In this document: piece by piece, positions 12,432-22,035 of the stretch
Layout of the letters: each line of letters starts with the position of its first letter
Numbering within the stretch: position 1 is the first letter of the stretch
Assembly: GCF_008107445.1 (NCBI RefSeq)
Contig: NZ_VSLD01000001.1
Location: forward strand, 248,001-312,000
Origin: Arthrobacter echini
Lineage (GTDB): Bacteria; Actinomycetota; Actinomycetes; Actinomycetales; Micrococcaceae
Length of the DNA stretch: 64,000 bases
Direction of reading: 5' to 3'
The notes under the pieces: generated by a model
Databases searched by the model: none
What the model saw: the letters and a program-made list of their open reading frames with translations, nothing else
Told to the model about the DNA's origin: nothing
Made by a program: the position numbers and the translations under genes

Positions 12432-12571
12432 CTGTCCATCATCTCAAACAAACGCGGGTCACCCAATCACGATCCCCCGGGTTGCCATGAGGGCCGGCGA
12501 CGGCGTCCACGCCGGTCCCTGCACCGCAGCGGGCGGTCCGGATCAGCGCCCCCGGAGTACGCTGGGGAATC

Positions 12572-13912
12572 ATGAGCACTCCGTCCCTCACCGCGCTGAC
12601 GCCTGCGCACGGACAGTCCAGCGGGCTCCGCAGCATCACGGTGGCTCGAGAAGACCTGGACCCCCGGACCGGACTCCTCGAGTACGTGGTGCGCGACGAC
12701 GCGCACACCTGGATCCGGCGGGGCGGCGGGCTGGTGGGATACGGGGAGATCACCCGGTTCACCGTGACCGGACCGGACCGTTTCACCCGGGCGCAGGACT
12801 GGTGGCGGCGCGAGCTGGCCGGCGCCGAGGTACTCGATGAACTCGGCATCCCCGGATCGGGCCTGATCGCCTTCGGCTCGTTCGCGTTCTCCAAGACCTC
12901 ACCGCACGCATCACGCCTGATCGTCCCCGAGGTAGTGGTCGGGTGCACAGAGGGTCGCAGCTGGCTGACCTACATCACCCGCGATCCCGAGGCGGAACTG
13001 AGTGCAGCAGCCGCGGAGGCGGCCCTTGCCGCGTGGCTCCTGGAGCCCGCCGCGGACCGCTCCCCCAGCCCGGGTGACCGCCTCGCGCCCGGCGTCCTGA
13101 CCGAGGATCAGTACACGCGGGCCGTCGCCGAGGGGGTCGAGCACGTCCGGAGGGGTGAGCTGAGCAAACTCGTGCTCGCACGCGACATCGTCGCCGAGCT
13201 GGAGCGGCCGATCGCGACGGCGCACGTTCTGCGCGAGCTCGCCGTGCGGTACGAGGACTGCTGGACCTACGCCGTCGACGGCCTGATCGGCTCGACGCCG
13301 GAGATGCTCATCAAGGTGGAGAACAACACGGCCGAGGCACGGGTGCTGGCCGGCACGCTGGATCGGGCCGATGCGCCGGCCGATGATCCCGGCTATGCCG
13401 AACGCGTCCTCGCCGGGTCCGAGAAGCAACTGCACGAGCATCAGATCGCCATCGACTCGCTCACCGAGACCCTCGCTCCGTTCACGAGTTCGATGACCTC
13501 CCACAGCGAGCCGTTCGTCCTGCAGCTGCCCAATGTGTGGCACCTCGCCTCGGACGTCACGGCGCGATTGACGGCGGACGACGACGGTCACGTGCCGACC
13601 TCGCTCGCCCTCGTGCAGGCGCTGCATCCCACCGCAGCCGTCTGCGGCACCCCGACCACCGTGGCCGGCGCATTGATCCGCGAACTCGAGCACCTGCAGC
13701 GCGGCCCCTACGCCGGGCCCGTGGGCTGGATCGACGCCGGCGGCAATGGTGAATGGGGTATCGCGCTGCGCGGCGCCGTGATCGAGACACCCACCCGCGT
13801 GCGGCTCTATGCCGGCTGCGGCATCGTGGAGGGCTCCACGCCCGAGGCCGAGCTGGCGGAGACCTGGAGCAAGTTCCGGCCGATGATCGAGGCCCTCGGT
13901 ATTCGGCGCTGA
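12572..13912 (+). CDS. menF: Isochorismate synthase
   Basis: Chorismate-binding enzyme of 446 residues that isomerises chorismate to isochorismate, the first committed step of menaquinone synthesis. Seen: KLVLARDIVAE at the start of the chorismate-binding domain, STPEMLI, LAGTLDR, the EHQIAIDSL segment, HPTAAVCGTP and the late YAGPVGWIDAGGNGEWGIALRGA and YAGCGIVEGS stretches. A salicylate or anthranilate synthase is less likely given menG, menD and menC in the same 10 kb. Divergent from menG. Confidence 0.92.
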   Translation: MSTPSLTALTPAHGQSSGLRSITVAREDLDPRTGLLEYVVRDDAHTWIRRGGGLVGYGEITRFTVTGPDRFTRAQDWWRRELAGAEVLDELGIPGSGLIAFGSFAFSKTSPHASRLIVPEVVVGCTEGRSWLTYITRDPEAELSAAAAEAALAAWLLEPAADRSPSPGDRLAPGVLTEDQYTRAVAEGVEHVRRGELSKLVLARDIVAELERPIATAHVLRELAVRYEDCWTYAVDGLIGSTPEMLIKVENNTAEARVLAGTLDRADAPADDPGYAERVLAGSEKQLHEHQIAIDSLTETLAPFTSSMTSHSEPFVLQLPNVWHLASDVTARLTADDDGHVPTSLALVQALHPTAAVCGTPTTVAGALIRELEHLQRGPYAGPVGWIDAGGNGEWGIALRGAVIETPTRVRLYAGCGIVEGSTPEAELAETWSKFRPMIEALGIRR

Positions 13913-19295: not shown

Positions 19296-19665
19296 GTCGG
19301 AGCCGGGCCGGGCGTCGGGGTGGGAACTCACGCACTCAGGGTACGGGAGCGCGGCGGGCCGTCGGGCGGTCCGGTGGGCGGCGGACATCCGCGAAGCCGG
19401 CAGCGGTCTGCAGGAACTCACAGTGGTTTTTTACTGCTGGCGAGCTCGCTCGCTCGTTCCCGACCGAGCAGTGTTCAACCTGTAGGGCGGAATCGGACAG
19501 AAAGTCTCGGAGGAAATGAGCGACGAAGGAGCGCCCGGACCTCATCAGGCCAGAGCGAAGCGAGAGGTCCATTGCCCTGATTGGAGCGCCAGCGGAGACC
19601 GGGGAAGCACGAGAACGTGGAACACCTACGGGCGCCAGCCACGACACCTCCGTAGAATTGTGACC
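19296..19665. other. Non-coding stretch upstream of menC, left edge of island
   Basis: 370 bases without a supportable gene. It holds the left copy of the 23-bp direct repeat (19401-19423), a T-run after it, the palindrome GCGAGCTCGC (19439-19448), and a TAGAAT (19653-19658) that could be the -10 of the first small gene. An open frame from 19516 runs into that gene but its first 50 residues look like unselected translation. Confidence 0.6.
19401..19423 (+). repeat. Left copy of 23-bp direct repeat
   Basis: Shares CTGCAGGAACTCACAG (16 identical bases, 19408-19423) and the preceding CAGC with the copy at 22013-22035; 21 of 23 positions agree. I see no third copy in this window. Confidence 0.8.
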
Positions 19666-19893
19666 ATGACTATGGCGACGAACGAACAAGCACAGACACC
19701 ACCACGATCACACAACTCGAAGCGCGTCGCGGCGATCTATGGGTTCGCGGGTACGATGCTCGCGCTGATTGCTGTGATGACCTTCTCGAGGGTTGACGCC
19801 TGGTACCTGGTTATCGGCTTCGGCCTGATCGCGGTCCTGGCCGTCGTGTACGTCGCCAAGGCGATCATCGCGCTCCGCCACCAGAACGACTGA
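19666..19893 (+). CDS. Small two-helix membrane protein
   Basis: 75 residues, no family recognised. A polar N-terminus (MTMATNEQAQTPPRSHNSKR) is followed by two hydrophobic segments, about residues 22-41 and 46-68. ATG 19666 is preferred because TAGAAT ends eight bases upstream, which would place the transcription start at the ATG (leaderless message, common in actinobacteria). An in-frame ATG at 19672 or GTG at 19660 remain possible. Two more tiny genes follow closely, two bases and then overlapping, so the three look like one operon of small membrane proteins inside the island. Function unknown. Confidence 0.6.
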   Translation: MTMATNEQAQTPPRSHNSKRVAAIYGFAGTMLALIAVMTFSRVDAWYLVIGFGLIAVLAVVYVAKAIIALRHQND

Positions 19894-19895
19894 TC

Positions 19896-19973
19896 ATGAG
19901 TCTCTGGAGCCGCTACCTGTTCGGGGCCTCACTCGTGTTCGGGATTGGCGCGACGATCTTCGCCGGGCGGTGA
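19896..19973 (+). CDS. 25-residue membrane microprotein
   Basis: Short reading frame beginning MSLWSRYLFGASLV, essentially one hydrophobic helix with basic ends. It starts two bases after the previous stop codon, and its TGA overlaps the GTG of the next gene (GTGA at 19970-19973). This tight packing is the main argument that it is translated. No homologue recognised. Confidence 0.45.
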   Translation: MSLWSRYLFGASLVFGIGATIFAGR

Positions 19974-20113
19974 CCGGCAGGATGGGGCCCGCGTCGATCC
20001 TTGCCATGGTCCTGGCTGCCTCCGCGTTCCTGATCTGCTCCATCATCGACTACCGACGTGAGCGTTCAGCGATTGGCATCGTCGAGGACCAGGAAGCCGG
20101 GCTGCCTGGGTGA
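19970..20113 (+). CDS. 47-residue single-pass membrane protein
   Basis: GTG-started frame with one clear transmembrane helix (ASILAMVLAASAFLICSII, about residues 8-26) followed by a charged tail beginning DYRRERSA. Overlaps the preceding 25-codon frame by four bases. Converges on the MpaB-type gene, whose stop lies 20 bases beyond. No family recognised; the positive-inside rule suggests the tail is cytoplasmic. Confidence 0.5.
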   Translation: MTGRMGPASILAMVLAASAFLICSIIDYRRERSAIGIVEDQEAGLPG

Positions 20114-20132: not shown

Positions 20133-21077
20133 CTAGTTGAGCCAGTCCGGGGGGCCGGCGAGGCCGAGCCGGTAGCGCGCCGCATCCACGGAGGGGCTAT
20201 GTGGGCCGAGGGCCAGCTGGAAGGTCCGTAGCTGCAAGCGGGTGCGCTGCAACCGGAGGCGATTCGCGAGTGAACGGTCGCCGCGGCCGGGCACCCCGGC
20301 GAGGGGGGCCACGGACGGGGAGATGACCAGCGCTCCTGCGCTGGCGATGCCGCTGTAGAAGATCCGCTCGGCCCGGTTCAGCCCGTCCGGTGCGGAGAGG
20401 AACGTCAGGAGCTCGGCGGGGACGGGTTCGAGGTCGGGTTCAAGCTCGCGCAGCGCTTCGGCAAGTTCCCGGCGGTTGGCCGGGAGGTCTTCGGCTCCGA
20501 GGGTTCGTGCGCTTCGGGACCAGTCGGCGACGTAGGTGTCGGCCCAGGTGCGGCCGAACCGTGGGGCGAGGTCGTGGCCGACGGCTTCGTGGGCGCCGAG
20601 GAAGGCGTCGGTGAAGGCCAGGTGCACCCAGCGCAGGAGGGCTGGGTCGGAGGCGGAGTAGGCGCGGCCGTCGTCGGTGGTGCCGCTGACCCGCCCGTGC
20701 ATGCGGCGGACGCGTGCCGAGTCCCGCTCGGCGAGTTCAGTGGAGCCGAAGGTGGTGATGGTGAGCCAGCGCGCGGTCCCGGCGAGGCGTGCCCAGGGGT
20801 CGCTGCGGTAAGAGGAGTGACGTGCGACCCCGGCCATGGCGAGGGGGTGTGCGCCTTGGCCGAGGAGGGCCGCGACGCCGCCGACCAAAGTCGAGAGGCC
20901 ACCGTGGACCTGCCAGACGACGCCGTCGGGTTCGAACAAGCCCGGACCCTCCCCCACCAGGGCGATGTCGCGCACCCAGTCCGGTGTCCCAGTGGGGTCA
21001 CCGGAAACCCGGGCACGAAACGCGTTGCGGACGCGGTGGCCCAGATCGGCGGGGCGTGGAATCGAGCTGAGAGGCAT
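20133..21077 (-). CDS. Oxygenase MpaB family protein (DUF2236)
   Basis: 314 residues. Typical features of the heme-dependent MpaB/latex-clearing-type family: VHGGLSTLVGGVAALLGQ, AHPLAMAGVARHSSYRSDPWARL, the TTFGS strand and the RRMHGRVSG segment, then LLRWVHLAFTDAFLG, whose histidine is a plausible heme ligand. Bacterial DUF2236 proteins are mostly uncharacterised; fungal MpaB cleaves a polyprenyl chain. ATG 21077 is selected because GGAG lies five bases upstream; 28 further upstream codons are open but unlike the family. It lies inside the island beside the transposase remnant, so it may be horizontally acquired. Confidence 0.85.
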   Translation of the reverse strand: MPLSSIPRPADLGHRVRNAFRARVSGDPTGTPDWVRDIALVGEGPGLFEPDGVVWQVHGGLSTLVGGVAALLGQGAHPLAMAGVARHSSYRSDPWARLAGTARWLTITTFGSTELAERDSARVRRMHGRVSGTTDDGRAYSASDPALLRWVHLAFTDAFLGAHEAVGHDLAPRFGRTWADTYVADWSRSARTLGAEDLPANRRELAEALRELEPDLEPVPAELLTFLSAPDGLNRAERIFYSGIASAGALVISPSVAPLAGVPGRGDRSLANRLRLQRTRLQLRTFQLALGPHSPSVDAARYRLGLAGPPDWLN

Positions 21078-21188
21078 GATGCTCCAACGACGGTAGATCG
21101 GGGTACGACGGACACCCAAGGACAGGAGTCCACTACGAAGCGTAGAACACTGCCCTGACAAGCCGATGGCTGCAGTGCCCTCGCATTG

Positions 21189-21803
21189 TCAGAAGAGCGT
21201 TGGCGCTTCGGGGTCGATGCCGGTGAGCAGGATCGCGGTCTTTTGATCATGTGTCGGGTAGGCGCGGAGCACGCGCAGGCGGGTGCAGTCATCGATCGCG
21301 GTGTACTGGTAGTAGCGCTTCTTCCGCCCTGTCTGTCCGAGGGGCTCGATGAACTGCACATCAACCTGCAGCGCGTGGCCTGGCCGCTGCTTCTCATGTC
21401 TCTTCCAACGGGTCTCCGTCCGCTTGTAGCGCTGCGACGCAGGAAGGCGGTTGAGATTCATGTTCTTCAGGACCCGCCAGACACCGGAGGCGCTGATCGT
21501 GATGTCGTGATACCGCTTCAGATACATCGTGATCCTCGCCGGACCGAAGTGGTACTGCTGACGAAGCCAGAGGATCTTCTCGACCACGTCCGCCTCCGTC
21601 GCCGTCGCCGTCGCCATCGGTGAATGATGTGGGGCACTCGAGCGGTCCTTCAACCCTTCGAGCCCCTCGGCTTCGTAGCGTTTCAGCCACCTGTAACACG
21701 CCTGCCGGCTCAGGCCGTAGTAGCGACGGGTCGCCGCAATGCTCCCGCTGACCTCCTCGACGTGACGCAGAACAGCGAGCTTGTGATTGGCTCGACGCTC
21801 CAT
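21189..21803 (-). pseudogene. IS481-like transposase, truncated at the 3' end
   Basis: About 204 residues of an IS481-family transposase: N-terminal helix-turn-helix (RRYYGLSRQACYRWLKRYEAEG), a linker, and the beginning of the integrase core with the first catalytic Asp in ALQVDVQFIEP. After TAIDDCTRLRVLRAYPTHDQKTA the frame ends in unrelated residues and a stop, so the second Asp and the Glu of the DDE triad are missing; family members run to roughly 350 residues or more. ATG at 21803 is used. The 5' side retains a plausible element end near 21905-21960, while the other end is lost. Inactive on its own. Confidence 0.85.
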
Positions 21804-22012
21804 CGCTCGAAGCCCTTCGTGGCTGTCTCTGGAACCATGGCGACCTCGACCGGTCGACGCACCGCCTTCTTCGGGAGTACCCCATGGAACAGGTCGATAC
21901 CGGTCGCACCACCCAGCGGACAAGTCGAGGGAAATGCACCCTAGCGGGGCCATCTTTTTTCAAGTCACACGCCAGACGGGATAGCCGGCATCAACGCTGC
22001 CGCCTGGTCCCA

Positions 22013-22035
22013 CAGCCGCCTGCAGGAACTCACAG
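22013..22035 (+). repeat. Right copy of 23-bp direct repeat
   Basis: Same orientation as the copy at 19401-19423 with two mismatches, both in the first eight bases. It ends 23 bases before the PAP2 start codon, so the island junction is immediately upstream of that gene. Confidence 0.8.

What the first reader, a model, noticed from the sequence alone, without database searches (positions are those of the whole stretch)
19666..20113. Overlapping trio of 75-, 25- and 47-residue membrane proteins
Three frames follow each other with gaps of +2 and -4 bases, each encoding one or two hydrophobic helices with basic ends; the first appears to be leaderless. The last two are too small for usual gene calling. 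Such packed microprotein operons can form small membrane complexes, toxin-like units or regulators of the neighbouring oxygenase.
Basis: partly seen in the sequence, partly recalled or inferred. Interest (0 to 1): 0.52.

Follow-up and report, generated by a model that had tools for sequence, protein, structure and literature searches.

The report
Leaderless membrane-protein gene pair, second broken
What looked like three tiny membrane-protein genes is most likely two, a pair found intact in related Arthrobacter; here the second gene is broken into two pieces, which are the 25- and 47-residue 'genes', while the two unnamed small-protein families themselves are real.

Summary
The three frames exist as described: 75, 25 and 47 aa, gaps +2 and -4, and no such trio in 30 resampled sequences. 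They are not three genes. In three relatives (uncultured Arthrobacter 2B2-80-3Z, A. ruber, A. bussei) the 25- and 47-residue frames are one gene, P2, of 63-72 aa and two predicted helices, directly downstream of P1; in two of them start and stop overlap as ATGA. In the window P2 carries an in-frame TGA plus a one-base shortfall in a G run, both at the turn between the helices. So 'frames 2 and 3' are most likely halves of one recently broken gene. Both families look leaderless: a -10 box 7 nt before ATG in 12 of 12 P1 genes, 6 nt before ATG in 14 of 14 solo P2 genes. Neither passes a Pfam or NCBIfam cut-off. The pair lies with MpaB in a block missing from the menC-PAP2 gap of most Arthrobacter. 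Nothing supports a toxin or a regulator of the oxygenase. Two other Arthrobacter have P2 out of frame at the same turn, the one odd point left.

The parts
19653..19658 (+). -10 promoter box TAGAAT, 7 nt before the ATG of P1 (predicted leaderless start)
   Evidence: sequence; same spacing in 12 of 12 P1 copies
19666..19893 (+). P1, 75-aa two-helix membrane protein, intact; stops two codons earlier than in the nearest relative
19896..20113 (+). P2, broken copy of a 63-72-aa two-helix membrane protein gene
   Evidence: one frame in three relatives; profile hits fall in two frames
19984..19987 (+). G run one base shorter than in the nearest relative: frame change within P2
20133..21077 (-). MpaB/Lcp-family oxygenase gene, convergent with P1-P2
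   Evidence: PF09995, E 1.1e-42; dN/dS 0.09 against G034
21189..21953 (-). IS481-type transposase fragment inside an 822-bp stretch (21174-21995) absent in G034
19416..19606 (+). shortened copy of an intergenic repeat of Micrococcaceae plasmids
19408..19423 (+). left copy of 16-bp direct repeat CTGCAGGAACTCACAG bounding the block
22020..22035 (+). right copy of the 16-bp direct repeat, in the native PAP2 upstream region

Best explanation
A leaderless two-gene operon of small two-helix inner-membrane proteins, whose second gene is broken in this genome. Transcription from TAGAAT starts at the ATG of P1 (inferred); the ribosome starts P1 without a leader; in intact relatives P2 follows by stop-start coupling at ATGA or from a start 2 nt beyond the P1 stop (overlap shown, coupling inferred). 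P1 and P2 are predicted helical hairpins and most likely act together as a small membrane complex or as modulators of a membrane partner (inferred, low confidence). In the window a ribosome on P2 makes helix 1 and stops at the TGA; helix 2 lies in another frame and could be made only by restart at GTG 19970 (or ATG 19982). Most likely the halves are a recent pseudogene, carried with MpaB on a block inserted between menC and a PAP2 gene.
For: P2 is one frame in G034, G013 and G007 and in G014 and other genera. Profile hits on the window fall in two frames, profile positions 1-33 and 30-65, with a TGA inside. Pairwise dN/dS among the three operon copies of P2 is 0.31-0.47, so P2 is coding. AlphaFold2 on three sequences gives helices 3-25 and 32-68 at low to moderate confidence (pLDDT 70.9, pTM 0.40): both lesions fall in the turn. 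The changes assigned to the window lineage in the N half (3 of 3) hit residues identical in all three operon relatives. -10 spacing is fixed in 12 of 12 P1 and 14 of 14 solo P2 genes. Empty menC-PAP2 gap of 61-254 bp in 21 of 28 other fetched loci.
Against: The C half has taken none of the 4 changes that could be assigned to a lineage (all 4 fall on G034), so it does not look decayed. Window-G034 dN/dS is 0.31 and 0.43 for the two halves, no higher than between intact copies, on few changes. Two other Arthrobacter (G018, G032) have P2 out of frame at the same turn, which chance decay explains only partly. No transcript or protein data. The function of P1 and P2 is a guess.
Confidence: 0.82

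Rival explanations
1. Gene fission that still works: the TGA makes a GTGA overlap in just the frame into which the one-base difference moves helix 2, so the ribosome ends helix 1 and restarts at once to make helix 2 as a separate peptide; the two helices pair in the membrane.
For: Split lies in the predicted turn and leaves each helix whole; GTGA is at the right place and in the right frame; helix 2 shows no window-specific change among 4 assignable ones; P2 is also split at this turn in G018 and G032.
Against: No relative has the GTGA; G018 and G032 lack a stop there, and G032 has lost its start codon; residues V19, L22 and E24, identical in the three operon relatives, have changed. Too few changes for a test.
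Confidence: 0.07
2. Three separate microprotein genes.
For: Three frames with hydrophobic stretches, absent in 30 of 30 resampled sequences.
Against: Frames 2 and 3 are one gene in three relatives and match one profile in tandem.
Confidence: 0.03
3. Sequencing or assembly error in the window.
For: One lesion is a one-base length difference in a G run, a common error type.
Against: There are two independent lesions, one a substitution to TGA; no reads could be checked.
Confidence: 0.05
4. Programmed -1 frameshifting rejoins the halves.
For: Three of seven Arthrobacter P2 genes are one base short at the same spot; in the window and G032 the heptamer G GGC CCG has the X XXY YYZ form (form recalled).
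Against: In the window the TGA lies before the slip site in the entering frame, so shifting cannot rescue it; G018 lacks the heptamer; four Arthrobacter genomes and the other genera are in one frame.
Confidence: 0.02

Closest known systems
Leaderless small-protein genes of mycobacteria (PMC4633059; abstract and passages seen)
   Same: Actinobacterial small proteins with an ATG at the (here predicted) mRNA 5' end and no Shine-Dalgarno leader
   Different: Here the start is inferred from -10 spacing only; these are Micrococcales families without a name in the libraries searched
Overlapping, translationally coupled gene pairs (ATGA/TGATG; PMC6728339, part of the abstract seen)
   Same: P1-P2 overlap by ATGA in G034 and A. 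ruber
   Different: In the window and A. bussei the gap is +2, and coupling is not tested
MpaB/Lcp-family oxygenase (PF09995)
   Same: The neighbouring gene at 20133-21077 is a member
   Different: Convergent neighbour only; three close copies elsewhere lack P1 and P2
Rv2743c/PspM, DUF2244, DUF202, DUF6232 (weak Pfam/NCBIfam hits)
   Same: Short hydrophobic stretches align
   Different: All below the curated cut-offs; likely shared hydrophobic composition

Membership tests
Leaderless gene | -10 box at a spacing that puts the transcript start at the ATG | tested here: met
   12 of 12 P1 genes 7 nt, 14 of 14 solo P2 genes 6 nt; left out before counting: 5 partial or degenerate P1 loci of the 17, and for P2 the operon copies, G186 (no ATG), G032 (no start) and the broken second copy of G247
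Leaderless gene | Mapped transcript 5' end at the start codon | not testable with these tools
   no RNA data
Coupled overlapping pair | Stop-start overlap ATGA between P1 and P2 | tested here: not met
   +2 in the window and G007; -4 in G034 and G013
P2 family (defined here) | One open frame of about 58-72 aa with two helices | tested here: not met
   window copy lies in two frames with a TGA
P1 family (defined here) | MTMGTN start, two helices, AKAI.ALR end | tested here: met
   12-sequence alignment A1; window has A for G at residue 4
Type I toxin | Short hydrophobic toxin with antisense RNA | tested here: inconclusive
   no Rfam family reached its gathering score in the window, one chance hit at E 3.6 at the locus; no assay
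Known defence or phage family | Match to a PADLOC or PHROGs profile | tested here: not met
   PADLOC none; PHROGs only E 0.017 for P1
MpaB/Lcp oxygenase (neighbour) | PF09995 catalytic domain above cut-off | tested here: met
   147.1 bits against cut-off 23

The most novel reading that the evidence does not exclude
A two-helix membrane microprotein has been split at its turn into two separately translated one-helix peptides by a stop-restart GTGA, and the same turn is a recurrent break point of the family (window, G018, G032): gene fission in progress in a leaderless operon.
Probability: 0.07. Interest if true: 0.6.

Novelty: new member of a known kind. Interest (0 to 1): 0.27.

Why it matters
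It shows how a broken gene can pose as a packed microprotein operon, and how relatives expose it. It also defines two small leaderless membrane-protein families of Micrococcales that the profile libraries searched do not name, one of which is out of frame at the same turn in three genomes.

Tried and rejected
Pfam, NCBIfam, PHROGs and PADLOC: nothing above a curated cut-off for P1 or P2. Solved structures by sequence: 0 hits for P1, one at E 0.048 for P2, taken as chance. No fold search was run, as the models are low-confidence two-helix hairpins (pTM 0.40 and 0.32). Plasmids by tblastn: no P1 and no P2 match. Viral contigs: no P2 relative. Rfam: nothing (one search gave one chance hit). Shared neighbours of P1: only P2 (3 relatives), MpaB next to P1-P2 (2 relatives; in G032 about 2.5 kb from one P1 copy), and a protein recalled as YiaA/B-like downstream in 3 genomes; no constant partner. 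Sequencing error as sole cause rejected, as there are two lesions. Programmed frameshift rejected for the window, as the TGA comes first.

Full report
OBSERVATION. The three frames are in the sequence exactly as described. A search for trios of short hydrophobic frames finds this one and no other in the window, and none in 30 of 30 resampled sequences. The middle frame is only weakly hydrophobic (1.35). So there is a real coding signal here, but its reading as three genes had to be tested.

RELATIVES. A protein search with the 75-aa frame (P1) matched 11 of 38 genomes of the same genus, the window's own included. Contig lengths and record titles identify the genus as Arthrobacter, G034 as an uncultured Arthrobacter (2B2-80-3Z), G013 as A. 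ruber, G007 as A. bussei, G008 as A. cheniae and G019 as Arthrobacter sp. Leaf234. In G034, G013 and G007 the DNA after P1 encodes ONE protein of 72, 65 and 63 aa (P2) where the window has the 25- and 47-aa frames. The four-way DNA alignment shows two differences that break the frame in the window alone: an in-frame TGA at 19971-19973 and a G run (19984-19987) one base shorter than in G034. The start/stop overlap between P1 and P2 is ATGA in G034 and G013, and the gap is +2 in G007 and the window; in the window P1 ends two codons before the G034 end.

THE P2 FAMILY. A profile of P2 matched 7 of 38 Arthrobacter genomes: 4 in one frame (G013, G034, G007, G014) and 3 in two frames at the same turn (window, G032, G018). 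In a draw of 295 genomes of the bacterial family, 15 matched, and in 396 of the order, 5 (one, G365, weak and inside an 894-aa frame). G247 holds an intact copy and a second, broken one. Outside the P1-P2 pair P2 stands alone with its own -10 box (mostly TAGGCT) 6 nt before ATG in 14 of 14 genes examined. G032 has lost its start codon; G018 is otherwise intact. Pairwise dN/dS among the three operon copies is 0.31-0.47.

THE P1 FAMILY. P1 matched 29 of 295 family genomes at E 0.001, but several weak hits lie inside long frames and are probably chance. In 12 of 12 full-length Arthrobacter copies a -10-like box lies 7 nt before ATG. Codons 4-6 (GGG ACG AAC) keep the same codon in 34 of 35 cases where the residue is kept, while most other conserved residues vary their codons (GCG at alignment column 68 is an exception); this hints at selection on the nucleotides at the mRNA 5' end. 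The window is the only copy of the 12 with another codon 4.

SELECTION. Window against G034: dN/dS 0.62 for P1 (13 changes), 0.31 and 0.43 for the P2 halves, 0.09 for MpaB. With G013 and G007 as outgroups, the N half of window P2 has 3 changes of its own, all at residues identical in the three relatives, while the C half has none of 4 assignable changes. The break therefore looks recent, and a working split cannot be excluded on so few changes.

STRUCTURE. AlphaFold2 gives two helices for P2 (3-25, 32-68; pLDDT 70.9, pTM 0.40) and for P1 (17-40, 46-74; pLDDT 65.1, pTM 0.32). Both lesions of P2 fall in the turn.

SETTING. P1-P2 and the convergent MpaB lie in a block between menC (name recalled; enolase-like domains) and a PAP2-family gene. 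In 21 of 28 other fetched Arthrobacter loci menC and PAP2 are 61-254 bp apart without MpaB; in 2 the interval is about 950 bp, in 5 menC was not found in the short flank, and 6 of the 36 genomes with PAP2 were not fetched. Among these only G034 is known to share the insertion. In A. ruber the P1-P2-MpaB group lies on another contig than PAP2. The block is bounded by a 16-bp direct repeat. The 1.1 kb around MpaB is 91-92% identical to the own contig C42, which carries many transposase-like frames, and to the A. agilis plasmid pAAG24-152, so the block is plausibly plasmid-derived (inference). Compared with G034 the window has two further stretches, 19369-19606 (mostly a shortened plasmid repeat) and 21174-21995 (an IS481 fragment).

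MECHANISM. Shown: two families, the -10 spacing, the ATGA overlap in two relatives, the broken window copy, the insertion. Inferred: leaderless start, coupling, membrane hairpins acting together, loss of P2 function. [quoted passage not shown] whether this holds in Arthrobacter was not tested. A paper search for leaderless small membrane proteins with Arthrobacter returned one unrelated phage paper, and none of four searches listed a paper that by its title is on these families; titles and starts of abstracts were all that was seen for papers other than PMC4633059 and PMC6728339.

VERDICT. The trio is most likely a two-gene operon with a broken second gene. The finding is modest, with a small chance of something odder in the recurrent break at the turn.

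Noticed in passing
19416-19606; L044:8845-9150 and 12502-12806; L043, L042, L050, L115, L116: About 300-bp intergenic repeat of Micrococcaceae plasmids (13 PLSDB records, no annotated gene under the listed matches), with inverted ends GTTTTTTGC / GCAAAAAAC and a predicted fold with 10 doubly changed pairs among 73 but an unfavourable covariation term; no Rfam match. The window copy lacks the middle and the right arm.
   Followed up: partly
L061 (G032), L062 (G018), window 19971-19988: P2 genes of three Arthrobacter genomes are one base short at the same TGGGG/CC spot between the two helices.
   Followed up: partly
19666-19689: Codons 4-6 of the P1 family (GGG ACG AAC) are almost invariant at synonymous sites, which suggests a nucleotide-level signal at the 5' end of a leaderless mRNA.
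   Followed up: partly
19408-19423 and 22020-22035: Exact 16-bp direct repeat CTGCAGGAACTCACAG bounds the inserted block; the right copy belongs to the native PAP2 upstream region.
   Followed up: partly
L026 and L055 (G004:C1, near 1293031): P1 remnant with the conserved start fused to the end of helix 2 (internal deletion), another decayed copy.
   Followed up: no
L050 (G032 contig C4): A P1 copy lies between copies of the plasmid repeat and about 2.5 kb from an MpaB gene, which suggests spread by recombination between repeats.
   Followed up: no
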